Source: Acidobacteriota bacterium (GTDB lineage Bacteria; Acidobacteriota; Blastocatellia; Pyrinomonadales; Pyrinomonadaceae). From it: a stretch of DNA of 64,000 nt. The stretch is taken from the NCBI GenBank assembly GCA_025463135.1, contig JAOAPY010000011.1, forward strand, positions 1 to 64,000, in the 5' to 3' direction. The notes under the pieces were generated by a model that was given only the letters and a program-made list of their open reading frames with translations, was not told where the DNA came from and ran no database searches. The position numbers and the translations under genes were made by a program. This document shows, piece after piece, positions 870 to 63,928 of this stretch. Every line of letters begins with the position of its first letter. Within the stretch, counting starts at the first letter, position 1.

Positions 870-1940
870 TTACTCCCAGAGTGACTTAACTAGTTCGTAA
901 CTGTCGGCGTCAACAAGACTCTCATCAAAACTGTCTGACTCCTTGATTGCTTTAAACGAGACGCGCGCCTGGTCCATCACCGAGGGTCGGCTATCGGGAT
1001 AGTACGGAACGGAATTCTCTTGCTTGACGGGTGCCCTCAAGATGTGACAGACCCAATCAGCGGTTGGCGTCCCGTCATAAATGCAAACGGCCGGTTCAAG
1101 GGGTTCATCAAATTCCTTCCGATAGGCTTCTCGAAACTGCTCGGAAATTGCGCCCCTGATCTCATGTTTGAGTAACAGACCTTGTGCGATGTTGAAGAGA
1201 CGTCCACGCCACCAGCGTACTTGGTCGTCACAAAACATTCCCTGGTACTGGGCGGGAGTAATCAGTTCGCGCAGTTTTGGCAGATTGAAGGACGCTAAAC
1301 TGATCCCAAGCCTTGTCGCAGCAGTTAATTCATTATAGACAATTCCAGGATAGCGAAGCACAACCGTCAGTATCCATTTTGCCGTTTGCGGAGTGTTCCA
1401 TAGACCGTTCGAAACTGGTGGTCCTGCCTCTCTTAAAAGATTCCCCTCATCCTCGTTGGCCTCCATTAGCGCCACCACCTTGTCCCAATCCTGTCCTTCG
1501 ACTTCGCCGAGCGCACTGAAGCCTTCAACCAAGGAAGTAATCGACGCTCTCACCTTCTCCGGCGTTCTGATGATATCGTCCTTGTCGATTATTAGATCGA
1601 GATCGCTACTCTGACGAAGGAACTGTTCCTGCCACTTAGCTGCCGTAATGGGTAGTCTAGTGACCAACGCAATTGGTACTGTTGGCTGACGCATTCTCAT
1701 CTCGGACGCTAAGGTACTCCCCATATAACTCACAGGATCGCCACCTTCGGGTGCGCTGCTAAGGTCATAATCCACTAGCAAAGCGTCCGGGTGATCTACA
1801 GCTAAGTCGGAAAAAGTTTTAGGGGGAAGTTCAAGAACGCATTCAAATTCGCCTGGCAAGCTGAGTAACTTACTGATTGCCTCTGCTTCGCCGCTGTTGG
1901 GTAAAGCCTCGTCATCAATATAGAGAACTCTAATTGCCAT
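870..1940 (-). CDS. Response regulator: CheY-like receiver plus unknown C-terminal domain
   Basis: 356 residues. The N-terminal ~130 residues are a receiver domain: acidic pair in YIDDEA (about residues 9-10), phospho-acceptor Asp in LLVDYDLS, conserved Thr in ALVTRLP, and a Lys in IIDKDD. The remaining ~220 residues have no DNA-binding domain I recognise (LWNTPQTAKWILTVVLRYP and WWRGRLFN are typical stretches). The start has GGAG at good spacing and overlaps the 3' end of the upstream kinase-like gene by 11 bp, so the two are translationally coupled. It is presumably phosphorylated by that protein. The C-terminal domain may act by protein contact and not as a transcription factor, which is inference. 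Confidence 0.75.
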   Translation of the reverse strand: MAIRVLYIDDEALPNSGEAEAISKLLSLPGEFECVLELPPKTFSDLAVDHPDALLVDYDLSSAPEGGDPVSYMGSTLASEMRMRQPTVPIALVTRLPITAAKWQEQFLRQSSDLDLIIDKDDIIRTPEKVRASITSLVEGFSALGEVEGQDWDKVVALMEANEDEGNLLREAGPPVSNGLWNTPQTAKWILTVVLRYPGIVYNELTAATRLGISLASFNLPKLRELITPAQYQGMFCDDQVRWWRGRLFNIAQGLLLKHEIRGAISEQFREAYRKEFDEPLEPAVCIYDGTPTADWVCHILRAPVKQENSVPYYPDSRPSVMDQARVSFKAIKESDSFDESLVDADSYELVKSLWE

Positions 1941-4254
1941 TCTCCGCCACTCCTTTGTCTGGGATGATTATTTCAATACAAGTTTTGTACGGTTTGTCCG
2001 CTGGGATAAACCGGGCATCTCCGTCATAGAGGTCTAGGATGTCTTTAACGACCTTGAGTCCAAGACCCGTACCAACTCCGAGAACAGGGTTGGGCGCGCT
2101 CGTTGTTACGAATGGCTTGAACGACATCTCACGTCTTTCGGGCGGGAGTCCTACGCCGGTATCACTCATCCTCAGCAACATCTTCCTGCCCTGTTTCTCC
2201 GCGTCAACCGCTACTACTCGTTCTGGTTGACCGTGCACAGCTTTCAACGCGTTTGACAGTAGATTCATCAAGACCGAGTAGAGTTCTGCACGGTAAATGG
2301 CAGGAGTTCTGAGACTGCGGGGCACCCGGTTATGAAAGATTACGCCGAACTTCTTCATGTAATACACCATTGGCTTTCTTACGTCTTCCACGACTTCATA
2401 CAGGACGTGATGCCGACGGCGCTGGCGAGCATCGGGGGCAAGAAGAAAGCCTAACTGTGAAGTCAAGAGCTCCATCGTCTCTCGCCATTCGGATATTTGT
2501 GAAGCGATCTCATGGAAACGCTTGCCCAGCTTTTTGGGAACGTCTGATCTTAAACGCAATAAATCATGCTCGCTTCGCAACACCGCTCCGTTGAGTGCTC
2601 GCAATTGATGATTCATTAAAGTAATAGTAGTGCCAGCCGATGCCAAGATCCTCAGCATCGATATTTCGCTGATGTGGCTTTGTTCTTCCTCTTCAGCTCT
2701 TGCGATGGCTTGATTTAGATTCCAGACGATCGTTTGTCGCTGGTCATCGGGAATCTCGGCGACAGCCTCGACCGCTACTCTGGCATCCGTGATTATCTCC
2801 GCAACCGATTTTACGCTTTCTTTCTTTTTCTTGGCTCTGCGCTCGGCACTATGTGCTGCGTATTTCAGGCCCGTCCAGTAGATTCCGTTTTGCGCAAAAA
2901 GCCGTAGACGCTTTACCGCCTCTGTTTCAATAAGGCGATCACGGGTTACATTGATCTCAATATTCTCGTGTCGAGACTGTGATAGGGAGACAACACCGAA
3001 CACCTGATTATTCTTGGGAATCAGTAAGAATGGGCGTCCGTGCAGTTCATTTCGCGTCTCGATGACCTTCTCTGGAGGATTGATGACATTAGCCAAATCC
3101 AAGTTTTTAGCGGCATATTCATCGAGCTGTAACCAATCATCACCAGCTTCCCCATATGGAAACACTCTAAATCCATCGAGGTAGATGCGAACGCCTCCTT
3201 CTTCGCGACCCTTGTTCTGAGCATCGCGCAGCCCAAAATCCGTACCTTTGAAATACTCGTCCTTGTAAATCATAAGATAGACACGGACTAATGCATTTTC
3301 TAATCCCTTGTAATCATGTGAATTGTCTACCAGACTGTCCGTTTCACCAGTCTTCAGGATCTCGATGTCATAATGCGCGACGCCCTTCTTGTCCACACGA
3401 CCATCTAGACGAGCAAATGCCCTACTCAAGAAAGCTTCGCCAAGGCCACCCGACAACTTGTCCAACTCACCTGAGTCTGCCACGCTCATCTCGAAGTTGA
3501 ATCCGGGATCGCTCAACGGCTTGTGCTTTTTTCCGCTTCGAACTGGCGCAGCTTTAATAGCAAGATCGGGGAAGGGATTTTGAAGGCTCAACAGATCGCG
3601 GCGGAGTTCATTTAGATCATCCTCGGTCCAAGCATCTCGAGCTTGTTCAATAAAGAGCGATACGCCTGTCTTGGTTTCGCTTGTGGCTGCCTGACGAGTG
3701 TAAGGAACCGAAACCTTGTCGAGATCTTTACCTTCGGTAAAATCGGCCCAATCAAAGTCTGTTATGACACTCTCTTTGGTTCCATCATCCCTTTCTGCAA
3801 TCGATTGCAAGATGAGCTTGGCTCCGAGGCGTCGCGCGGCAAAACGTCCTACGCCCTTAGCTCCCGTTAATGGTCGGCGGTAATATCTCGATGCTGGATG
3901 GCGCCGTTTTTCAGGCGTCGCAATTCTCATCCAGTTATCTTGGACTTCTTCGAACACCATGCCGTGGCCGTCATCTTCAATTACAATTGTGCCGCCAGGT
4001 TTCCCGATCGTTTCAAAGGTAACGGTCACCTTTGTTGCATCCGCGTCGTAGGCGTTTTTGACAAGCTCAGCTAGTGCGATGGATGGCTTAGCAACAAGTC
4101 TTTCCCCCAGTTGAAATAGCAAGCTGCTATCGACTGAGAACGTGAAGGATGGCGGAGGTGGCGGCTTCTCGCCATTCTCCTCAGGTTTCACCTTGCCTGC
4201 TCGCGGTTTACGGCTGGTCTTTTTCTTCGACATACGAACTACACGTTTAGCCAC
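1930..4254 (-). CDS. Double-GHKL ATPase / soluble histidine kinase-like protein
   Basis: 774 residues with two GHKL ATP-binding domains. The N-terminal one (about 40-200) has the MORC/HSP90-like boxes ELVKNAYDADA (63-73), EDDGHGM (93-99) and GAKGVGRFA. The C-terminal one has a DHp-like segment with LMNHQLRALNGAV, then N-box LMNLLSNALKAV, G1 DTGVGLPP, F-box FKPFVTTS and G2 GTGLGLKVVKDIL near residue 728. There is no membrane segment, and the basic, proline-rich N-terminus (MSKKK...PPPPP) looks flexible. An internal ATG 21 bp downstream is an alternative start. It lies first in an operon with a receiver protein and a third gene. The HSP90-like ATPase plus kinase arrangement is the kind seen in cytoplasmic stress or defence signalling, but the function is unknown. 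Confidence 0.75.
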   Translation of the reverse strand: MAKRVVRMSKKKTSRKPRAGKVKPEENGEKPPPPPSFTFSVDSSLLFQLGERLVAKPSIALAELVKNAYDADATKVTVTFETIGKPGGTIVIEDDGHGMVFEEVQDNWMRIATPEKRRHPASRYYRRPLTGAKGVGRFAARRLGAKLILQSIAERDDGTKESVITDFDWADFTEGKDLDKVSVPYTRQAATSETKTGVSLFIEQARDAWTEDDLNELRRDLLSLQNPFPDLAIKAAPVRSGKKHKPLSDPGFNFEMSVADSGELDKLSGGLGEAFLSRAFARLDGRVDKKGVAHYDIEILKTGETDSLVDNSHDYKGLENALVRVYLMIYKDEYFKGTDFGLRDAQNKGREEGGVRIYLDGFRVFPYGEAGDDWLQLDEYAAKNLDLANVINPPEKVIETRNELHGRPFLLIPKNNQVFGVVSLSQSRHENIEINVTRDRLIETEAVKRLRLFAQNGIYWTGLKYAAHSAERRAKKKKESVKSVAEIITDARVAVEAVAEIPDDQRQTIVWNLNQAIARAEEEEQSHISEISMLRILASAGTTITLMNHQLRALNGAVLRSEHDLLRLRSDVPKKLGKRFHEIASQISEWRETMELLTSQLGFLLAPDARQRRRHHVLYEVVEDVRKPMVYYMKKFGVIFHNRVPRSLRTPAIYRAELYSVLMNLLSNALKAVHGQPERVVAVDAEKQGRKMLLRMSDTGVGLPPERREMSFKPFVTTSAPNPVLGVGTGLGLKVVKDILDLYDGDARFIPADKPYKTCIEIIIPDKGVAENGN

Positions 4255-50021: not shown

Positions 50022-50948
50022 CTAGCACGGCAACTGAGACTGTTTTTGGTGCGTCGTCAGAGTGACGATCTGAGCACCTTGACCAACTTCCATGTTCCTT
50101 ACGCAAGGATTTGGGTGATACCCTTCCTTAACAACGCGCACTCTGACCTTTTCTTGTCGGTCGGCCGGGATGCCTTTTAGCACAAAGCCTCCATTGCTGG
50201 CTGTCTGGACGGCTTGGATTTCAGGAAAGTCATCCAGTGAGACCGTGGCACCCTGCAACGGTTGATCGTTGAGGTCGCGTACATAACCAAAGAGCTGAGC
50301 GGTTACTGGTTTGCGTTCAGCTTGTCCCTCGTTGTTCGAGTTGTGGTTGTTTCGCAGCACAACAGCAAACACTATTAATAAGGCGAGCGCAAAACCCGTA
50401 ATGAGCCACGAGCGGCGCAGTAGAGATAATGCTGACTTAATCGTTGCAGGCCTCGCCACTTCGTGCTGTTGTGACAGCAGCGTCGGACGCCCATCGTTGA
50501 TATTTACAACTCCTTTGCCGATTCCTAATGACTGAGAACGATGTTGCAGTGAGCTAACTAGCCGCTCGTAGCCGTTTTCTTCAAAAAGATTTACCCACTG
50601 CCAGCGGCGCAACCTCTCAGGCATGTTGCATTCTTCTAACTTGATAGGAATAATAAATATTGTATCCTCAGGCTGCTCATCTGCTGCGTCTAAGGCCAAT
50701 TTTATCTCCTTCTGCACGAACCCCGCCTTATTGATTGACCCTCGCGAGAGACAAACTATTACAACGTCACTGGAGCGAACTGCGTCCCTTATCTTCTGCT
50801 CCCAGTCTTGCCCCGGCAACAAATTCTTCTCATCCAGCCAGGGAGCAAAGCCGTCAGCGCGTAAGCGTTCATAAAGCTCGCGTACCCTGTCCTTGTCAGC
50901 AGATGAATGACAAAGGAATGCGCATAAAGGGCGGGTAGAACTTGACAT
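50022..50948 (-). CDS. TIR domain - membrane segment - CarboxypepD_reg protein
   Basis: 308 residues. The N-terminal TIR domain (about 8-140) has AFLCHSSADKDRVRELYERL, the BB-loop-like WLDEKNLLPGQDWEQKI and VIVCLSRGSINKAGFVQKEI, whose Glu sits where NADase-type TIRs have the catalytic Glu. A membrane segment (about 181-199: LITGFALALLIVFAVVL) is followed by an extracytoplasmic beta-sandwich (about 218-305: LFGYVRDLNDQPLQGATVSL). It is first in an operon with the giant TPR protein. A signal from the outer domain or the TPR partner could control the TIR domain; this is inference. Confidence 0.85.
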   Translation of the reverse strand: MSSSTRPLCAFLCHSSADKDRVRELYERLRADGFAPWLDEKNLLPGQDWEQKIRDAVRSSDVVIVCLSRGSINKAGFVQKEIKLALDAADEQPEDTIFIIPIKLEECNMPERLRRWQWVNLFEENGYERLVSSLQHRSQSLGIGKGVVNINDGRPTLLSQQHEVARPATIKSALSLLRRSWLITGFALALLIVFAVVLRNNHNSNNEGQAERKPVTAQLFGYVRDLNDQPLQGATVSLDDFPEIQAVQTASNGGFVLKGIPADRQEKVRVRVVKEGYHPNPCVRNMEVGQGAQIVTLTTHQKQSQLPC

Positions 50949-54888: not shown

Positions 54889-55020
54889 AACCGAAGGTCC
54901 GGGTGCCAGGGGTGGCCTGAGATAGGCTCTGTCTAGGCTGCGGTGATTTGGTCAAACCCACACAGGAAGTATGCACTCGATCTTAGAGATCGCGCGCACG
55001 CCCGCGTGGAAGCCAATAAA

Positions 55021-55091
55021 GGTTCGTGGGGCGTCACGAACCAAAAACACGTTGACCCGGAGCTGTCCTGTCAAAAACGTCTCCGGGTCAA
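55021..55091 (+). promoter_or_regulatory. Two perfect stem-loops in a leader region
   Basis: GGTTCGTG-GGGCGT-CACGAACC (55021-55042), then AAAAACACG, then TTGACCCGGAG (55052-55062) and CTCCGGGTCAA (55081-55091) with an 18-base loop. They lie in the probable 5' leader of the sigma-like gene whose start I place at 55276. They could be a leader regulator, part of a small RNA or binding sites. An open frame crosses them but looks non-coding here. Confidence 0.4.
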
Positions 55092-55275
55092 TATTGAATC
55101 CCTTGCTAGTCGGGGGCGGATTCGTGTACCCCAAAATCAGTGGAAGTATACCCACATTCGCCTTCGCCTCGCAAGAGGTACGAGGAGAAAAAATGGATTG
55201 TCAACATTTCTTAGGGTCAGTGACCCGCAGGGCACCGCGCTCTCACATCCTGACCGGGTTGAGAGGCAGATTGAA

Positions 55276-55863
55276 ATGGGTAATGACCTGGACGGAGAGC
55301 GCTTCATAACGGGGGCCAAGAGCGGAGAGGGACCGTTAGGTTTCGTGCTGGAGGAAACTCTGATCTTTTTCGCCTTCCAGCATCCCGAGACGTCCCTTGA
55401 GTTCGAACTTGTCAAGGTCTTATTTAACCGGCTATGCGCTCGCTTTCGGGGGCGTTACGGCCTCGAGCTATGCCAGGAGTTAAACCAGGATATCTGGTTA
55501 ATGCTTCTGCAACCATCAAGCACGGCCAGACTCTGGGCGCAACTTTGCTTCTGGCGTTTTGCCTTCCATCGTTTCAAGAATCTGTTGAAGAAAAAGAGAC
55601 GCGCTACCAAAGCTTGTTCCCTTGATTCTGAGCTCGGGGTTCGCTGGCGAGTCTTGAAGTCGATCTCTCCCGGTTTATCACCGGACGAAGTTGTGTATCT
55701 GCGTGAGGTGATGCTTTCCCTCCCGCCCTACCAGTGCGCAGCTTTCCAATTACGCCATGAATGTGGGTTTTCCTTGAGCGAGATCGGGGCAATGCTCAAG
55801 AGAGACGTACGAACCGTTCGCCGACTCCTTAAGAGCGCTGAGCGCCATTTCCGGAGCTCGTAA
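55276..55863 (+). CDS. Sigma-70-like (ECF) regulatory protein
   Basis: 195 residues from the ATG at 55276; the frame is open upstream to 54943 but that part crosses strong hairpins and has no protein character. The C-terminus is a clear region-4 helix-turn-helix (SLPPYQCAAFQLRHECGFSL, then SEIGAMLKRDVRTVRRLLK). The middle (LELCQELNQDIWLMLLQP, RFAFHRFKNLLKKKRR) is a diverged region 2. No anti-sigma gene is adjacent. A strong terminator separates it from the next gene, so the two are not one simple operon, although the sigma factor could still drive its neighbours. Confidence 0.65.
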   Translation: MGNDLDGERFITGAKSGEGPLGFVLEETLIFFAFQHPETSLEFELVKVLFNRLCARFRGRYGLELCQELNQDIWLMLLQPSSTARLWAQLCFWRFAFHRFKNLLKKKRRATKACSLDSELGVRWRVLKSISPGLSPDEVVYLREVMLSLPPYQCAAFQLRHECGFSLSEIGAMLKRDVRTVRRLLKSAERHFRSS

Positions 55864-55873
55864 TTCACAGTCC

Positions 55874-55920
55874 GTGAAGGCGGCGACGTGGGTAAGACCT
55901 CGTCGCCGCCTTCACCTTTT
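55874..55920 (+). terminator. Strong rho-independent terminator after the sigma-like gene
   Basis: Perfect 15-bp GC-rich stem GTGAAGGCGGCGACG / CGTCGCCGCCTTCAC (55874-55888, 55901-55915) with a 12-base loop and a short T-run (CTTTT). Confidence 0.85.
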
Positions 55921-56054
55921 CCCGACACAGTCGGGAATATTTTTCTTGCGGCGCCTGGATCAGATGTCCGCTTTCCTATCAACCGAGTTGTTTATATACC
56001 CGAGAGACGATCGCTCAACAGCGATTCGCTAAGAACGAGAATCGGAGGTTGGAT

Positions 56055-57176
56055 ATGTCATCGGACGTTTTGATCCGCTTAGAAGATACGAGTATGACCA
56101 CACCGATAGCGATGAATCGCAATGCCACCTTGCGAGACGCAGTGCTCCAGGCGAGTGCTCAAGGCGTGACGCTTTATAACGGACAGCCTGTAGACGTATT
56201 GCTTGACGATCCGCACAATCGCTCATCACTCGACGTCCAAATCTGCGATGTAGATTTCCTCCAAACGGGCGTGGTGCGACTCTTTGAGAAACCTACATTT
56301 GTGGTTCTTGTTGTCAACAAGAATGGGCGCCCAAGGTACTATGATCTTCCCTCGTCGATGACCGTGGGAGATCTGAAAGTTACGATGCTCTTTGACCACT
56401 ATGACAAAAGCTGTCGCAGAGGCGCGCAACTTTCAGAGAGTGAGTTCCTGATCACAGGCACACGAACAATAGTGGGAAATGAAACACCACTCTTAAGTCT
56501 CACAACGGTTCCTTATTGCAACGTGTGCCTAGACCTCGTTCAACGGATCTCGATCAATTCGAACGCGGTGCCAGTGAGCACTTCGATTCCCGAGCGCATC
56601 TGTCGCGCACATCTAAAGAGGGGCAACTTCCAGAGCGGCGTAGACCACGGCTATTGGCGACTAGTATCGATCGACTGGCCGCATGCGGTAATCGCGCTTC
56701 GAAGGGGAGAGCCCGGGCAGAGTAGTGAGACCTTCATCCGCTTCACCATAAGTAACTATCCGACCGAGGCTCCGACAATTGAGTTATGGAATACGACTAA
56801 GCACCGTAGCATTGGGGTCGATGAGTGGCCCCTGTGGTTCAGCAAATGTGTTGCCGACACTTTTCCCGACTTGATGACTCTTGAGCCGGAGCCTTACACG
56901 CCGGAACTTCTTCGCATCTCCGAATCCATAGCGAGGAGGAGGAAGCAGCGTATCCATCGTTGGAAACCAGGGGGCGATCTTACTCAGTGTCTCATTCGGT
57001 TTTTGGTGTCTTATCGTGATGTTAGCCCGCCGGTGTCGTTAGCTTCAAAACCCTTTGTTCGTAGGAAAGCTCTTCAACGCGACCCCTTACGTCGCGCGGC
57101 GGCGAACATGAGTCTCAATTCAGCGAGACCGTGCTCGTTGTCGCACGGACTTTTCGACCTGCGGCGAACTCACTAA
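56055..57176 (+). CDS. Putative ubiquitin-like / E2-like fusion protein
   Basis: 373 residues from the ATG at 56055, with GGAGG six bases upstream. Residues ~75-150 look like a beta-grasp (TFVVLVVNKNGRPRYYDLPS, MTVGDLKVTMLFDHY); the first 75 may be another. Residues ~190-300 recall the E2/UBC fold: YWRLVSIDWPHAVIALRRGE, then FIRFTISNYPTEAPTIELWN, which has the YP..P turn and strand of E2 enzymes, and DEWPLWFSKCVADTFPD, whose Cys could be the active residue. The C-terminus is basic and poorly ordered. Bacterial Ubl/E2 systems (such as BIL) also need E1 and JAB proteins; none is visible here. The assignment is tentative. It lies 117 bp upstream of tnsAB. Confidence 0.45.
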   Translation: MSSDVLIRLEDTSMTTPIAMNRNATLRDAVLQASAQGVTLYNGQPVDVLLDDPHNRSSLDVQICDVDFLQTGVVRLFEKPTFVVLVVNKNGRPRYYDLPSSMTVGDLKVTMLFDHYDKSCRRGAQLSESEFLITGTRTIVGNETPLLSLTTVPYCNVCLDLVQRISINSNAVPVSTSIPERICRAHLKRGNFQSGVDHGYWRLVSIDWPHAVIALRRGEPGQSSETFIRFTISNYPTEAPTIELWNTTKHRSIGVDEWPLWFSKCVADTFPDLMTLEPEPYTPELLRISESIARRRKQRIHRWKPGGDLTQCLIRFLVSYRDVSPPVSLASKPFVRRKALQRDPLRRAAANMSLNSARPCSLSHGLFDLRRTH

Positions 57177-57293: not shown

Positions 57294-59990
57294 ATGAAAA
57301 CGGACGACTTCGCTTGTTGGGTCAGGTCATTTGACGCCAAAACCCAATCGCTTATCGAGACAATACGTAGCTCTGATCCGGCTCGACGAGTTCAGAGTGG
57401 GGAACGCAACATTATTGGCTGCTACCAGAGCAAGAAAAACGGAAACTCAATCCAACATGAGAGCGCACTGGAACTGGCTGAAATACAGATACTGGAACGA
57501 GACTCTAACGTCCTTGAATATTACGATCAGCCGATTACGATCAAACTGGAATATGAAGGATCCAATGGACGCCAGCAGGCGTGGATGCATACACCTGATT
57601 TTTTCGTCTTGAACACCGCCGGCGCCGGCTTTGTAGAGTGCAAGCCGGAAGAAAATCTTCTAAAGCTGGCGGAGAAATTTCCCCAGCGCTATCAAAAGGA
57701 TGAAAACGGGCAGTGGCATTGTCCACCCGCAGAGCAGTATGTAGAGGCCTTCAAACTCTATTACCGCATTGTATCGTCCAATGATATTAACTGGACGTTT
57801 CAACGCAACGCTCACTTCCTGCAGGACTACTACGGCTTAACATCGTCATTCGTCTCCGCTGCGGCCCGTAAAGCTGTGCTGGAGATTTTGGCGGCAGAAA
57901 CGAACATTCGACTGAACGATCTATTCGACAAGACGCAGGGCTCTGCGGCACGGGACGAAGTCTTAGCCATGATCGCTTTGGGCGAGGTCTTCGTTGACCT
58001 CAATGAATCGCCATTGGTTGAGCCCCAAAACGTGAGTGTATTTCCCAACGAAGAGGCGGGTAAGGCGTTTGGAAGCATTTTTGAAGCTGATCCTCCCAGA
58101 CGTAGCACAGGGCCGCGCGTTGTGAATGTCTCCGCTGGAGGTCTAGTTCGCTGGAACGGCGAAGCTTTCAAGGTAGTAAACGTCGGCGAATCGCTCGTCA
58201 GCCTCCTTAGCAATGACCACCGATTCGTTGAAATGCCTGTAAGCGTTATTGAGGAATTGGTAGCCAGGGGCCGTTTGGCGGCGGCCGCACCAGATCCGGA
58301 ATCCCAGCTCAGTCTACGAGTCAGGGAGATTCTCGCGGGCGCCAACGAGGCTGATCTTGCTGAAGCAAATCGTCGTTGGCGTCTGGTGAAGTGTCGCCTA
58401 AAGGGCGAGCGACTCCCTCGCGATAACAACATGTCCGAGCGGACCATACGCTGGCTCGTCTCCAGTTACAAGCGAGCTGAAAGTGAACATGGATGTGGCT
58501 ATGTTGGCTTGTTATCTAACGTAAGAAAACGAGGGTGTCGGATTTCACGACTGCCGCAGGTGACGTGGGACGCAATCAGGGATTTCATTGCTAACGACTA
58601 CGAGACTCACAAACAAAAGAAGATGTTCGCAGTCTGGGCGCTGTTGCGAGAGAAGTGTCAGGCGCAGAACATTATTTCACCCAGCTACCGCACTTTCAGC
58701 CGCGCCGTTCATCAGTCTTCCATCTATCTACAGACACGCAAGCGCAAGGGACGCCGCGCGGCTTATAAGTACGAGCCATTCATTTGGGCTCTCGGTCAAC
58801 AAACCCCGCGTCACGGCGACCGTCCTTTTGAGATTTGTCATATCGACCACCAACTCATGAAGGTAGTCGCTACGTCATCTCAGACTAACGCTCCGCTTGG
58901 TGCGCCATGGTGGACAATGATGTTGGATGCGTTTAGCCGACGGGTTCTTGGCGTGTTCGTTTCGTTTGATCCGCCCAGCTATCGTTCATGCATGATGGTC
59001 TTGCGCGACTGCGTTCGCCGCTACGGCCGCTTTCCGCAGACTATTGTGGTCGACGGCGGTAGAGATTTCCAAAGTACTTATTTCGATACGCTCCTCGCGA
59101 TGTATGAATGCAACAAAAAGGTGCGACCACCGGCTAAACCTCGATTCGGTTCCGTTGAAGAAAGGCTCTTTGGCACCGCTAACACCCAGCTAGTTTACAA
59201 TCTCTCCGGCAACACACAGATAAAGCGAGAACGGCGCCAAATCACCAAAGCCCTTGATCCCAACAGCAATGCTCTTTGGCCCATGGGACGGATTTATGAC
59301 CGCCTCTGCGAATATTGTTTCGACATATATGACACCATCGAACATCCCGCGCTGGGCCAATCTCGCCGTGATGCTTTTGCCGCGGCTTCGGAAAGCACCG
59401 GCTTCCGTTCGCACCGGCTTGTAGCCTACGATGAGGCATTCCTAATCTCCACGATGCCCACGACTCCAAAAGGAACCGCTAAGGTCCAGCCAGGGCGTGG
59501 GGTTAAGATCAATAGCATCCTCTACTGGTCTGAAGCCTTTCGCGAGCCCTCGATCGAAATGAGGAACATAGCGATCAGGTATGACCCTTTCAATGCGGGC
59601 ACTGCCTTCGCATTCGCGGGTAATCAATGGGTTCGCTGTCATTCCGAATACTTCTCCACTTTCAACGGCCGTTCTGAAAGGGAACTAATGTTGGCGACAG
59701 CAGAACTGCGCGCTCGATTCCGACGTCACGGCCAACAATACCTCACTATTACCGCCAGGAAACTCGCCGAATTCCTGGACTCTGTGGAAGCGGAGGAAGT
59801 GTTACTTGAACAGCGTCAGAGGGACTACGAAATAAAATCAATCTTGAATTCAATCAATTCGGGTGGTAACGATCAACGAACTAGTCCACCGGCTGCGCTG
59901 CCGGTTAAGTCTACCCGCCTGGAAGACAGAAGGTCTAAAACTCGCAAAGTCGCTACCGAAAGTGCTCCGGCGATTTACCAGGAGTTCTAA
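57294..59990 (+). CDS. tnsAB: Fused TnsA-TnsB transposase
   Basis: 898 residues. The N-terminal ~200 residues are a TnsA-like endonuclease with Glu in QHESALELAEIQ (near 58), Asp in WMHTPDFFVL (near 101) and GFVECKPEENL (near 115), i.e. the E...PD...ExK pattern that cuts the 5' strands. The rest is a TnsB-type DDE transposase: Asp in EICHIDHQLMKVV (near 519), Asp in TIVVDGGRDFQST (near 586) and Glu in FGSVEERLFGT (near 622), followed by a beta-barrel and a C-terminal tail that in relatives contacts TnsC. Fusion replaces the separate tnsA and tnsB of Tn7. The stop overlaps the tnsC start (TAATG). Confidence 0.9.
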   Translation: MKTDDFACWVRSFDAKTQSLIETIRSSDPARRVQSGERNIIGCYQSKKNGNSIQHESALELAEIQILERDSNVLEYYDQPITIKLEYEGSNGRQQAWMHTPDFFVLNTAGAGFVECKPEENLLKLAEKFPQRYQKDENGQWHCPPAEQYVEAFKLYYRIVSSNDINWTFQRNAHFLQDYYGLTSSFVSAAARKAVLEILAAETNIRLNDLFDKTQGSAARDEVLAMIALGEVFVDLNESPLVEPQNVSVFPNEEAGKAFGSIFEADPPRRSTGPRVVNVSAGGLVRWNGEAFKVVNVGESLVSLLSNDHRFVEMPVSVIEELVARGRLAAAAPDPESQLSLRVREILAGANEADLAEANRRWRLVKCRLKGERLPRDNNMSERTIRWLVSSYKRAESEHGCGYVGLLSNVRKRGCRISRLPQVTWDAIRDFIANDYETHKQKKMFAVWALLREKCQAQNIISPSYRTFSRAVHQSSIYLQTRKRKGRRAAYKYEPFIWALGQQTPRHGDRPFEICHIDHQLMKVVATSSQTNAPLGAPWWTMMLDAFSRRVLGVFVSFDPPSYRSCMMVLRDCVRRYGRFPQTIVVDGGRDFQSTYFDTLLAMYECNKKVRPPAKPRFGSVEERLFGTANTQLVYNLSGNTQIKRERRQITKALDPNSNALWPMGRIYDRLCEYCFDIYDTIEHPALGQSRRDAFAAASESTGFRSHRLVAYDEAFLISTMPTTPKGTAKVQPGRGVKINSILYWSEAFREPSIEMRNIAIRYDPFNAGTAFAFAGNQWVRCHSEYFSTFNGRSERELMLATAELRARFRRHGQQYLTITARKLAEFLDSVEAEEVLLEQRQRDYEIKSILNSINSGGNDQRTSPPAALPVKSTRLEDRRSKTRKVATESAPAIYQEF

Positions 59991-61154
59991 TGAAAAAGGA
60001 AGATAATTTTCCGCGTGACTTGTTGACGAGGCCGTTGACTGAACAATCTGATTACTTCAGGCGCTACACGGTAGCGCACCCCCTTTTGGTCGACTCTTAC
60101 AACGCCATGGTTGACGCGATCAGCGAACCTGTAGATTCTCTGCTGGTTTTTCTTTACGGTCCGGCCGGCTCCGGCAAGACAACACTCTTCCTGAAAATCC
60201 AAAACAGCATCAAGGAAAAGATGAAGAAAGAACTCGAAGAGGACCGTGAGCGGATACCCGTCGTCGCCGTTGAAGCGGACGGACCTGAGACTGGCAATTT
60301 TGATTGGCGAGACTTTTATCGCCGCATGTTAACAGAGATGGCTGAGCCTTGCGTTGAGAACAAAGTGCGGCCGCCCGAAGACGCCGAACGAATGTGGCTA
60401 ACGCTCCATCGGGCCCGTAAGCCCACTCAAGCGGATCTCCGTTATGCCACCGAGCAGGCTCTTAGAATTCGTCGGCCTCTTGCAATCTTGATAGATGAGG
60501 CCCAGCACCTTGCCAAGATAGCCTCCGGGCGCAAGACGCAAGACCAACTCGATGCTATTAAATCATTAGCAAACAAGCCAAGGATTCCGATCGTACTCTT
60601 CGGGACCTACGAACTGCTCTCATTTCGTAATCTCAGTGCACAACTGACGCGACGCAGCGTAGACGTACATTGCCGGCGATATAATTCAGGGGACGCCGAT
60701 GATATTTATGCCTTCAAGAAATGTTCTGTGGGCGTTCGAGCGCCACCTGCCAGTGCCCGAGCCGCCCAGCCTCGTGGATTGCTGGGACTATTGTTACGAG
60801 AAGAGCCTCGGTTGCGTCGGGATCCTCAAACGCTGGCTCATCAGGGCTCTGAAACTCGCGCTAACCGCCGAAGCGAAGACTGTGTCCCGGGCACATCTGG
60901 ACAAGACAGCACTGAGCGTTTCACAGTGCCAGAAGATACTGATTGAGTCGGTCGAAGGCGAGAACCGGCTCAAGGACTCGGTTGATGCCCGCGCAAAATT
61001 GAGAAGGCAAATGTTTCTTGATGACGAATCGGCTCCTAAGGCGGCAGCTAAACGAGCAGAGAAAGCTATCGCGGGCAAGAAACGCCGTAGACCTGGTCAA
61101 CGCAATCCGAAACGAGATCCCGTCGGTCGAGGGAGCGATGCCAAAACTGTATGA
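59990..61154 (+). pseudogene. tnsC: TnsC AAA+ ATPase, +1 frameshift near 60715
   Basis: The gene starts at the tnsAB stop. Walker A is FLYGPAGSGKTTLF (near 60) and Walker B LAILIDEAQHLAK (near 168), with RIPIVLFGTYELL as sensor 1. At about 60712-60722 the frame must skip one base in TTCAAGAAATG: with one A fewer it reads FKNVLWAFERHLPVP and continues in the +1 frame to 61154, ending in a basic tail (GKKRRRPGQRNPKRD). Without the shift, 240 bases of unrelated text end at 60946. Joined, it is ~388 residues, normal for the family. It may be a mutation, a sequencing error in an A-run, or recoding. Confidence 0.8.
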
Positions 61155-62358
61155 CGGTTGGGATCTACGGAAGGTTGACTTACCTCCCGCTACTAAACTC
61201 TATCGACTTGAGCCAGTCGGCGTAGGTACTCCTCTAGTCGAAAGCCTTTCCGGACACTTCAAAAGACTCTCGAGTATTCATTGCCTCACTCCCACGCATC
61301 TGTTCAGAGAGACTGTGGGACCACTTTTAGCTAAACGCTATTTACACACGGAGTCTCCGGGAGCGGCAATTGACTGCGCCAGCCTATCCAGATCTTTCAG
61401 CGTCCGCTCCGCCGCAATCAATAGCACCGGATTGATGGCAGCAGAATGGATCCGAACCCTGGAACAATTGATCGTAGTCCCGAACCTGCGACATCTCACA
61501 TTGCGCCCTTGGTCCCACGTAATCTCACAACGACACTTAATTCGCTCGCATCTCGCTTGGTGCCCCTGTTGCTACCATGAGCGCCGCTTAAAACAAGAAA
61601 TAGTCTACGAACCCCTTCTTTGGTTCATTCAAAGTGTGACCATCTGTCCGATACATAAGTGTCGATTGCGGACCAAGTGTTCGAAATGCAAAAGAGCCCT
61701 ACATGCCTTGTCCCGTTGCAGTGAGCCAGGATACTGTTCCGAATGCGGTGCGTGGCTTGGCGAAAACACGCACCTACAACAGCCGGCGGTCGGTCAGACG
61801 GCAGACGAATTAGCGTGGCAAAGCTTTACCATTGAAACAATAGGGAAGTTGCTTGCCGCCGGAGATGATCAGTCCACGCTACCTTCGTCCACGAATTCTC
61901 TGGGGGAAGCCCTCTCATCTCTAATGAAATCCACTGGCAAAGGGCTCGGACATCTTGCCAAGCTGATCGGCAAACCCAAGACGACGGTGTGGGGGTGGCG
62001 CAACAATACAAGTCGAATTCTTCTCGCAGATCTGCTTCGCCTGTGCTTTTGCCTCCGCATTTCTCCCATAGATTTCTTTCAGATGGAGGGCAATTCTAAT
62101 AGACAGCACCGTCAATTTCTGAAGACTCAACCTTCAGCCATACAGCGTCACGGTCGTTCTCAACGCAAACCCATCGAAAAAGCCAAATTGCAGCGCCAGT
62201 TAAGAGCAATCGTCGAACGCAAAAAACCGCCCCGCTCACTGGCGGCAACCGCAGAACGGTTGGGGGTTGATAAAAGGGTTCTCTATAGACACTTTCCTGA
62301 ACTTAGCCGCTTGATTGCCTCGCGCGGCGCCGCCGTTCGCGGTATCAGTAAACAATAA
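61138..62358 (+). CDS. tniQ: TniQ-family target-selection protein 1
   Basis: 406 residues from the ATG at 61138 (GAGGGAG upstream), overlapping the end of tnsC by 17 bp. The N-terminal TniQ domain has YRLEPVGVGTPLVESLSGHF and the zinc-binding Cys/His run AWCPCCYHE, ICPIHKCRLRTKCSKC and GYCSECGAWLG. The C-terminal ~150 residues have two helix-turn-helix-like segments (GHLAKLIGKPKTTVWGWR and LAATAERLGVDKRVLYRHF). TniQ/TnsD proteins recognise the target, by DNA sequence or through a CRISPR complex, and recruit TnsC. The helix-turn-helix tail favours direct DNA binding. Confidence 0.85.
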   Translation: MPKLYDGWDLRKVDLPPATKLYRLEPVGVGTPLVESLSGHFKRLSSIHCLTPTHLFRETVGPLLAKRYLHTESPGAAIDCASLSRSFSVRSAAINSTGLMAAEWIRTLEQLIVVPNLRHLTLRPWSHVISQRHLIRSHLAWCPCCYHERRLKQEIVYEPLLWFIQSVTICPIHKCRLRTKCSKCKRALHALSRCSEPGYCSECGAWLGENTHLQQPAVGQTADELAWQSFTIETIGKLLAAGDDQSTLPSSTNSLGEALSSLMKSTGKGLGHLAKLIGKPKTTVWGWRNNTSRILLADLLRLCFCLRISPIDFFQMEGNSNRQHRQFLKTQPSAIQRHGRSQRKPIEKAKLQRQLRAIVERKKPPRSLAATAERLGVDKRVLYRHFPELSRLIASRGAAVRGISKQ

Positions 62359-62410
62359 CCGAGCAAGCCCCTCCTCAAGCCCCGCAGAATAATAAAAGGT
62401 GGTGGAACCA

Positions 62411-63928
62411 ATGAGCCTGCCTCCCTCTTTCGGGGCCTCGGATACTCCCGTGACCGCTGGGCTTAGAAAGCTTGATTTGAAAAATCTCGATTCCTATAGG
62501 TCGTGGACAATCAAGAAGGCAACCCTTCCTATTCGCACGACGCTTTGCCGCTTGGAACCGATAGGCCTTGGAACACCATTGGTTGAATGCTTAACAAGCT
62601 ATGCAACTCGCCTCGCGCAAGCGCACTGTTTATCGGTCGGAAAGCTAATTTGTAATGTTGTTGCGCCTTTCATTGGCAAGCCCTACCTGCGCGACGCACG
62701 AGACGCCGCCCGAATGAATAAACATGATGTGGTCGCCTCAGACTTCGTTCGTGCATTGGAGTCGCTCACCGGCTTCTCCGGGCTCGGGTATTTAACTACT
62801 GTCCCGTTCTACTCTCTCTTCAGAGAACCGGGTCTCACCCGTTCACGACGTGCTTGGTGTCCGGATTGCTACGAGGAACAGCGTGAGAAGAGACAGATAT
62901 ATGATCCGCTTCTTTGGGTCTTAGAAGCGGTCAATGCCTGCCCGCTTCATCGACGGCCTTTGCAGACTGGTTGCCCTCACTGCGGTGTCCTCGAGAGGTG
63001 GCTCGAAAAGCGATCGATAGCGGGGCATTGCTCCAAGTGCGGGCAATGGTTGGGACCAAGGAGGAAAGGGCGCGAGCTTGGCGATCCTCAAAAGCTGGAT
63101 CCAGACTTCCCATTTATTCTATGGACCGCAGAGTCGCTGAAAGACATTTTAGGTGTGCTCCCCAGCACTACAAGGTTCTTAACTCCGGAAGAGATAACCG
63201 ACCAAGTGAAAAGAATTGCCGGCCAACACGGTATGCGGCTGCCATCCAGATCTCGCATGATGAAAACTGTCCTCCGCATCTGTCACGCTGTCCATGTCAT
63301 GCCGCTCACCCTTCTAACCGGCGATTTGCAGGTTCTCGAATCTAGAGTCCAACTTGGGCAACTGATAAAGAAGAAGCGTACACGGCAAGGTGTTAACTGG
63401 CAGCAGATTCAAGAGTCCTTTAACAACTTGATGAATGAAACGCCGCCACTCTCCGTCAAGGAAATAGTTCGTCGCCTGAAGCAATGTAGCCGACCGCAAA
63501 TAGTAAAGCTCCTCTGCAAGAACTTTCCCAAGTGTCGGCACCTGTTATCGGACCGTCGTGCTGATGAACATCGAAAAGGTCAAATCGCTCTTGTGCTTCA
63601 ATTCCAAAACTTGGTTAGTAGTAATATTTACCCTCCTCCATCACTTACGCAGATTGCTGGCCAGTTCAAGGTCAGCCCACAGGTGCTCCGCGCAATGTGC
63701 CCGCAGCTATGTGAAATCATCACAGGTCGCCGCACCAAATGGAAACAGAAACAAAGGGAACTGATCGAAGAGGAGGTAAGAGAAGTAGGGATGGCGTTGC
63801 ATCGGCGCGGAATGTATCCCTCCTTCCCCAGGGTATCCGCCTTGCTCAAGACGCCCTCCCATTTGGTTCGTGAACGGTACCGGAACGTACTTCGACAACT
63901 TCAGCGAGAACTTGGATACCGCACATAG
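62411..63928 (+). CDS. TniQ/TnsD-family target-selection protein 2
   Basis: 505 residues from the ATG at 62411, which follows AAGGTGG; an upstream GTG reading is unnecessary. It has the same N-terminal TniQ domain (CRLEPIGLGTPLVECLTSYA, AWCPDCYEEQ, NACPLHRRPLQTGCPHC, GHCSKCGQWLG) and a longer C-terminal region of ~280 residues with several helical DNA-binding-like repeats (SVKEIVRRLKQCSRPQIVK, TQIAGQFKVSPQVLRAM). It is a paralogue of the gene 50 bp upstream. Two TniQ-type proteins in one element suggest two target pathways, as in Tn7-like elements with a homing and a second targeting route. Confidence 0.85.
   Translation: MSLPPSFGASDTPVTAGLRKLDLKNLDSYRSWTIKKATLPIRTTLCRLEPIGLGTPLVECLTSYATRLAQAHCLSVGKLICNVVAPFIGKPYLRDARDAARMNKHDVVASDFVRALESLTGFSGLGYLTTVPFYSLFREPGLTRSRRAWCPDCYEEQREKRQIYDPLLWVLEAVNACPLHRRPLQTGCPHCGVLERWLEKRSIAGHCSKCGQWLGPRRKGRELGDPQKLDPDFPFILWTAESLKDILGVLPSTTRFLTPEEITDQVKRIAGQHGMRLPSRSRMMKTVLRICHAVHVMPLTLLTGDLQVLESRVQLGQLIKKKRTRQGVNWQQIQESFNNLMNETPPLSVKEIVRRLKQCSRPQIVKLLCKNFPKCRHLLSDRRADEHRKGQIALVLQFQNLVSSNIYPPPSLTQIAGQFKVSPQVLRAMCPQLCEIITGRRTKWKQKQRELIEEEVREVGMALHRRGMYPSFPRVSALLKTPSHLVRERYRNVLRQLQRELGYRT

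What the first reader, a model, noticed from the sequence alone, without database searches (positions are those of the whole stretch)
56055..57176. Possible ubiquitin-like/E2-like fusion gene beside a Tn7-like operon
The protein appears to join beta-grasp text with an E2-like region (SNYPTEAP, then a Cys in WFSKCVADTF). Bacterial Ubl-conjugation systems are usually multi-gene defence modules with E1 and JAB. A lone Ubl-E2 fusion next to a sigma-like gene and tnsAB would be new. The identification is by eye and weak.
Basis: inference. Interest (0 to 1): 0.65.

Follow-up and report, generated by a model that had tools for sequence, protein, structure and literature searches.

The report
Dead ubiquitin-like/E2 fusion near Tn7-like genes
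A bacterial gene near transposon genes encodes a two-domain ubiquitin-like protein fused to a ubiquitin-conjugating-enzyme fold, clearly related to an anti-phage ubiquitin-like system, but it has lost the residues and partner genes needed for conjugation, so if it works at all it probably works by binding.

Summary
The ORF at 56055-57176 (373 aa) is real. Its C-terminal half matches DUF7665 and PADLOC BilB (E2; E 9e-15 and 2.6e-19), and its predicted fold matches a bacterial E2 (8tz0) first. Its N-terminal half is a tandem beta-grasp like ISG15 and di-ubiquitin, weakly matching BilA. So it is an in-frame BilA-BilB fusion related to the Bil anti-phage conjugation system. It looks catalytically dead. 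The BilA tail Gly (19 of 19 aligned rows) is Ser169 here, running on into the E2. The E2 motif LYLPCDR...GH (Cys in 14 of 18 distinct aligned BilBs) has become PYTP-ELLRISES. No BilD was found in the genome, and no E1-like or JAB match on the window's contig. Loss is uneven: the active-site segment fell to 13% identity while the first strands stayed at 53%, outside the range of all 18 relatives. That favours a retained binding role over plain decay but does not prove it. No second such fusion turned up; 15 of 15 fetched Tn7-like relatives lack it; transposon ends were not found. Multi-Ubl fused to an inactive E2 has been known since 2006 (type 6e): new variant of a known kind.

The parts
56055..57176 (+). 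BilA-BilB-like fusion gene, 373 aa
   Evidence: Intact ORF, GGAGG upstream, coding-like codon usage, DUF7665/BilB match
56055..56561 (+). Tandem beta-grasp (BilA-like) half, residues 1-169
   Evidence: AlphaFold mean pLDDT 75; top Foldseek hits linear di-ubiquitin and ISG15, best E 5.5e-9; 8tyx_A 'bacterial Ubl-deubiquitinase complex' Z 10.8, rmsd 2.7, 81 aligned; BilA profile E 6e-4 against ORFs of window plus extension
56559..56561 (+). Ser169 codon, in the column where 19 of 19 aligned BilA rows have the tail Gly; no stop follows
56592..57065 (+). E2/UBC-fold (BilB, DUF7665) half, about residues 180-337
   Evidence: best structure matches 8tz0_D and 8tyz_C, 'bacterial E1-E2-Ubl complex' (Foldseek E 1.3e-3 and 1.9e-3; 8tz0_D Z 10.0, rmsd 4.0, 116 aligned)
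56892..56942 (+). Lost active-site loop PYTP-ELLRISES..., where BilB has LYLPCDR...GH
   Evidence: No Cys and no His there; no other frame carries the lost part
57066..57173 (+). Arg-rich C-terminal tail, residues 338-373, no counterpart in aligned BilBs
   Evidence: coding signal not frame-specific here
54943..55863 (+). ECF-type sigma-like gene upstream; relation to the sigma-like gene of Bil islands inconclusive
   Evidence: Sigma70_r4_2 over cut-off; TIGR02937 E 4.7e-7, under its cut-off
55919..55937 (+). Terminator-like hairpin with T tail between the sigma-like gene and the fusion
   Evidence: a consensus match only (5 sites found in the region, 3.3 expected in shuffles)
57294..59990 (+). 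TnsA-TnsB fusion transposase; 117 bases between the fusion's stop and its ATG
59990..61154 (+). tnsC/tniB ATPase gene, split by a frameshift at about 60700-60725
   Evidence: Frame 1 matches relatives to about residue 245, frame 2 (60699-61154) matches their remaining C-terminal part
61018..63928 (+). Two tniQ genes
   Evidence: PF06527 over cut-off in both

Best explanation
The gene is an in-frame fusion of a bilA-like (tandem ubiquitin-like modifier) and a bilB-like (E2) gene that has lost conjugation chemistry: no tail Gly on the Ubl, no Cys or conserved His in the E2, and no Bil E1 or JAB partner found. Most likely it acts, if at all, as a non-covalent binding protein, a permanently linked Ubl plus E2 variant, comparable in logic to eukaryotic UEV/RWD proteins. 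Shown: homology, predicted folds, fusion, loss of residues, no BilD match in the genome, uneven conservation. Inferred: that it is expressed and selected, and that it binds a partner.
For: DUF7665/BilB and BilA matches. Both folds. Ser169 in place of the tail Gly of 19 of 19 aligned BilA rows. E2 Cys present in 14 of 18 distinct aligned BilBs, absent here with the following His. No BilD match in its genome at E <= 0.001; three ThiF and two over-cut-off JAB matches, none on the window's contig C21. 373 codons open with frame-specific codon usage; no frameshift hides the active-site part. Segment 21-40 of the E2 half is 53% identical to relatives and segment 101-122 only 13%, a difference of +40 against -22 to +6 in the 18 distinct relatives; column shuffle for range 93-125: 87 of 20,000 as extreme.
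Against: The E2 half sits on a branch of 3.25 changes per column (median end branch 0.39), as expected under weak constraint too. No orthologue was found, so selection cannot be measured. The neighbouring tnsC is frameshifted, so the locus may be decaying. The models are middling (pLDDT 71 and 75), and the E2 half has no Foldseek match at E <= 0.001. The segments of the conservation test were chosen after looking at the alignment.
Confidence: 0.5

Rival explanations
1. Relic: a bilA-bilB remnant of a Bil island broken up in or near a mobile element, its stop lost by chance, now drifting without function.
For: Very long branch; no second fusion in 162 genomes of the class; partners not found; tnsC frameshifted; the sigma-like upstream gene might be another remnant, since Bil islands often carry one.
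Against: Open over 373 codons at about 27% mean identity (E2 half) to relatives, with frame-specific codon usage; loss concentrated at the active site while the first strands are kept.
Confidence: 0.33
2. Decoy: the fusion mimics the charged E2~Ubl pair and blocks a Bil system (its E1, JAB or substrates) in whatever cell the mobile element enters, as counter-defence.
For: Dead Ubl plus dead E2 kept in one chain; retention is strongest in the first strands of the E2, near surfaces that in eukaryotic E2s contact E1 and backside ubiquitin (recalled, not tested); position beside transposon genes; Bil operons exist in the same class.
Against: No Bil operon found in its own genome to inhibit; not shown to lie inside the transposon; no second copy among phage or plasmid matches.
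Confidence: 0.1
3. Active conjugation factor using host MoeB/ThiF-like E1 and JAB proteins and a different catalytic residue.
For: The genome has three ThiF-family and two over-cut-off JAB-family matches; four of 18 distinct aligned BilBs also lack the Cys although BilA, BilC and BilD are encoded beside them, and an invariant BilD Cys is kept in the two of the four that were checked.
Against: The Ubl tail Gly is gone and the Ubl is not freed from the E2; the conserved His is gone too.
Confidence: 0.04

Closest known systems
Bil (BilABCD) anti-phage conjugation system, BilA and BilB
   Same: Tandem Ubl then E2 in the same order; same E2 family (DUF7665 / PDLC03845); same folds
   Different: Here the two are one protein; tail Gly, E2 Cys and His lost; no BilC or BilD found
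Type 6e operons of Iyer et al. 2006 (PMC1779556): polyUbl fused to an inactive E2/RWD-like domain
   Same: Tandem Ubl fused at its C-terminus to a Cys-less E2 fold (section 14 read and Table 1 passages seen)
   Different: Type 6e sits with JAB-E1 and a metal-binding protein; here no JAB or E1 match was found on the contig; the E2 half here belongs to the BilB family
Eukaryotic UEV and RWD proteins (for example TSG101, RWDD1)
   Same: E2 fold without catalytic Cys, working by binding (recalled); weak structure matches 2ebm (E 0.046) and 4yc1 (E 0.34)
   Different: No sequence relation shown; not fused to a tandem Ubl
Tn7-like transposons with TnsAB fusion and TniQ
   Same: tnsAB, tnsC and two tniQ genes downstream
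   Different: The gene is not conserved there: 15 of 15 fetched relative loci lack it; element ends not located

Membership tests
Bil system (BilABCD) | Tandem beta-grasp Ubl (BilA) | tested here: met
   Fold of the N-terminal half; sequence match weak: BilA E 0.044, BilA profile E 6e-4
Bil system (BilABCD) | C-terminal Gly on BilA | tested here: not met
   Ser169 in place of Gly; 19 of 19 BilA rows (18 distinct) have Gly, some with a few residues after it
Bil system (BilABCD) | E2 of the BilB/DUF7665 family | tested here: met
   E 9.3e-15, over cut-off; E 2.6e-19
Bil system (BilABCD) | Catalytic Cys of the E2 | tested here: not met
   No Cys at the column that holds one in 14 of 18 distinct BilBs; no other frame supplies it. 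That this Cys is the catalytic one is inferred from its motif and a review passage
Bil system (BilABCD) | E1 (BilD) and JAB (BilC) partners | tested here: not met
   BilD: no match in the genome at E <= 0.001. ThiF-family matches on contigs 6, 8 and 37, over-cut-off JAB matches on contigs 6 and 3, none on contig 21. A BilC scored under the JAB model's cut-off, so this arm is less sure
Type 6e polyUbl-inactive E2 fusion | Tandem Ubl fused to a Cys-less E2 fold | tested here: met
Type 6e polyUbl-inactive E2 fusion | Adjacent JAB-E1 gene | tested here: not met
   No match to either model on contig 21
Type 6e polyUbl-inactive E2 fusion | Sequence membership in the polyUbl family | tested here: inconclusive
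   No Pfam match other than DUF7665 at E <= 1; a missing match does not exclude kinship
Cargo of a Tn7-like transposon | Lies between the transposon ends (TnsB site arrays) | tested here: inconclusive
   No repeat array or convincing inverted repeat found
Bil system (BilABCD) | Conjugation and anti-phage activity | not testable with these tools
   Needs experiment

The most novel reading that the evidence does not exclude
A mobile-element protein that keeps a dead ubiquitin-like modifier and a dead E2 in one chain as a stable mimic of the E2~Ubl intermediate, used to disable (or to sense) Bil-type ubiquitin-like immunity in the cells it enters: a bacterial counter-defence pseudo-conjugate.
Probability: 0.1. 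Interest if true: 0.78.

Novelty: new variant of a known kind. Interest (0 to 1): 0.42.

Why it matters
If retained for binding, it is a bacterial counterpart of eukaryotic E2 variants, arisen by fusion within an anti-phage conjugation system, and it would show that such systems give rise to dead regulators or decoys. It also draws attention to BilB proteins in otherwise present Bil operons that lack the motif Cys. If a relic, it is a clear example of how such operons fall apart.

Tried and rejected
Rejected: a frameshift hiding an intact active site. Not shown: that the upstream sigma-like gene is the sigma of Bil islands. hhalign gave probability 92%, but in a set of 1,101 ORFs it scored E 0.0051 and an unrelated sigma-like ORF scored better (E 0.00027); with the N-terminal domain alone it ranked first at only E 0.063. 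It remains possible.

Rejected as a relative: a weak match in genome G092 (E 2.9e-5, 29%, one stop inside). Its locus has no hit to any Bil profile at E under 0.3 and the matching frame is 74 aa long among overlapping frames: taken as chance.

Led nowhere: transposon ends by inverted or direct repeats; NCBIfam and PHROGs give no match for the fusion; phages no match; single-protein scan of genome contigs and alignment scan of viral contigs found no relative, while the alignment scan of genome contigs found 11 loci, with bilA and bilB in separate frames; sequence search of PDB with a BilB profile and one BilD found no credible relative, although fold search found the bacterial E1-E2-Ubl entries. 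Alignment A2 of the fusion with separate BilA and BilB rows was misaligned and not used. Of the 21 plasmid records matched, 7 were opened.

Rows dropped: L006 is the same sequence as L073 and was counted once. L078 and L087 repeat L065; L085 and L086 carry the same BilA and BilB as L071 and L072. Left out of A5: L076 (as L077, has the Cys), L080 (close to L079, has the Cys), L011 (uncertain start, has the Cys), L075 (near-identical to L077 but with Ser at the Cys position, on a contig labelled coverage 1.03), and L067 (divergent, has a Cys by eye). L074, L075, L076 and L080 were left out of the BilA alignment; their BilA frames also end in Gly. The segments were chosen.

Full report
Observation. 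The frame at 56055-57176 is open, has a GGAGG a few bases upstream of ATG 56055, and has coding-like codon usage in that frame alone. It is the only match in a 6.48 Mb genome of 56 contigs; the window is the first 64 kb of a 214 kb contig.

What it is. Pfam gives one family at E <= 1, DUF7665 (E 9.3e-15, residues 182-267, over cut-off). PADLOC calls the same stretch BilB (E 2.6e-19) and sees a trace of BilA at residues 127-169 (E 0.044). tblastn against plasmids finds 21 records, none covering 80% of the query; in 17 of the 20 rows shown the match lies over one or two annotated genes, in two over three genes (one of them Mov34/MPN/PAD-1), and one record has no annotation. In the seven of these that I opened, bilA-, bilB-, bilC- and bilD-like genes follow in that order, bilA weakly matched in one. 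The fusion is therefore a joined bilA-bilB.

Folds. I modelled the halves separately. The Ubl half (pLDDT 75, pTM 0.58) has the strand-helix pattern of two beta-grasp units. Its best Foldseek hits are linear di-ubiquitin and ISG15 (270 matches at E <= 0.001), and VIA-align lists 8tyx_A, a bacterial Ubl, at Z 10.8, rmsd 2.7 over 81 residues, within a tied group. The E2 half (pLDDT 71, pTM 0.59) is helix-helix-four strands-helices. Its three best Foldseek hits are the bacterial E1-E2-Ubl complex (E 1.3e-3 to 3.3e-3), then UFC1. By VIA-align, 8tz0_D is first at Z 10.0, rmsd 4.0 over 116 residues, tied with E2s such as 3we5 (9.6) and with the FANCL central domain (9.4). The active-site side of the E2 model is of low confidence.

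Chemistry lost. In 19 of 19 aligned BilA rows (18 distinct) the tail holds a Gly in one column, last or followed by a few residues. A review passage says BilC trims BilA to open its reactive C-terminal Gly (PMC11354881, passages read). Here LDLVQRISINS replaces it, with Ser169 in the Gly column and no stop. In BilB the motif LYLPCDR...GH holds the Cys in 14 of 18 distinct rows. Its spacing to the following E (in some rows) and H (+6, +8) partly fits the catalytic Cys138-Glu144-His146-His151 pattern that the review gives for BilB; I matched this by eye. The window has PYTP-ELLRISES: no Cys, no His. Other frames do not carry the missing part.

Partners. BilD has no match in the genome at E <= 0.001. 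The three ThiF-family matches and the two over-cut-off JAB matches lie on other contigs. One ThiF and one JAB are neighbours on contig 6, which looks like an ordinary sulfur-metabolism pair (inference).

How it behaves in evolution. In a tree of 19 rows the window is by far the longest tip (3.25 changes per column, median 0.39), and its position is unsure. But change is uneven. E2-half residues 21-40 (strands 1-2) are 53% identical on average to the canonical set, against 33-52% for each of the 18 relatives to the rest. Residues 101-122 (active-site loop) are 13%, against 39-59%. The difference is +40 against -22 to +6. A column shuffle on 78 conserved columns gives 87 of 20,000 as extreme for the range 93-125. 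The segments were chosen after inspection, so the figure is indicative. Plain neutral decay would not be expected to spare one segment; selection for binding could.

Surroundings. Downstream come tnsAB, a tnsC whose C-terminal part lies in another frame, and two tniQ genes. tnsAB relatives occur in 18 of 294 genomes searched, the window's own included. I fetched 15 of the 27 places in other genomes, with at least 4 kb upstream of tnsAB; none encodes a BilA-, BilB- or fusion-like ORF at E <= 1e-3 in the stretch held, and the genes next to tnsAB differ from locus to locus in the eight listed. No transposon ends could be found. A terminator-like hairpin separates the sigma-like gene from the fusion. 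The sigma-like gene has no match at E <= 1e-8 in the other genomes of the 162 of the class. DUF7665 matches occur in 6 of those 162 and 7 of 396 of the phylum, the window included in both; in the other five of the class bilA and bilB are separate frames. Intact Bil islands often carry sigma-like, about 210 aa, and UvrD-helicase genes before bilABCD. Whether the window's sigma-like gene is that one is unresolved.

Comparison with print. Iyer et al. 2006 (PMC1779556; section 14 read, Table 1 passages seen) describe type 6e operons in which a tandem Ubl is in some species fused to a Cys-less E2/RWD-like domain beside a JAB-E1 gene. That is the same architecture by another route. My searches (open-licence PMC only, lists capped at 12 to 25 rows, of thousands) showed no title or abstract start on a BilA-BilB fusion or on Bil genes in Tn7-like elements, and the Tn7-like cargo survey PMC8649781 has no occurrence of 'ubiquitin' or 'bil' in its main text. 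The main Bil papers (Millman 2022; Hoer 2024; Chambers 2024) are recalled, not read.

Verdict. A catalytically dead BilA-BilB fusion: what it is, about 0.85 sure. That it serves as a binding protein rather than a relic is a modest preference. New variant of a known kind; interest moderate.

Noticed in passing
L007:1492-1986, L008:1492-1998, L016:6085-6543, L013:6076-6546: BilB proteins lacking the motif Cys (Tyr, Tyr, Leu, Ala) although BilA keeps its Gly and BilC and BilD are encoded next to them; in L013 and L016 an invariant BilD Cys is kept. L075 has Ser there, but its contig is labelled coverage 1.03. The E2 step may differ in such systems.
   Followed up: partly
L012, L014, L015, L017, L065, L073, L077, L079, L080, L081: A conserved block before bilABCD: sigma-like gene, a protein of about 210 aa, and a UvrD-type helicase (with an IrrE-like M78 domain in L012), on plasmids and in genomes of several phyla (the sigma in L014 and L017 by annotation).
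   Followed up: partly
window 59990-61154: tnsC is split by a frameshift at about 60700-60725, its C-terminal part matching relatives in the second frame: decay, programmed shift or assembly error.
   Followed up: partly
window 50022-50948, minus strand: TIR-domain protein with a carboxypeptidase-regulatory-like domain, 4 kb upstream of the sigma-like gene.
   Followed up: no
L060, the 400 bases upstream of tnsAB: tnsAB directly abuts what reads by eye as an internal part of a dnaA gene: a possible insertion or partial copy.
   Followed up: no
L058 and L055, within 300 bases upstream of tnsAB: Repeated motifs that look like TnsB-site arrays: in L058 the repeat count (76) exceeds all 20 control stretches (at most 19); in L055 (42) it only equals the control maximum and is judged by eye.
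   Followed up: no
L071:2-742 and 986-3969: A Bil operon whose sigma-like gene is divergent from bilABCD, with no helicase between.
   Followed up: no
L072:10931-12324: bilD split over two frames in an otherwise ordinary bilABCD run.
   Followed up: no
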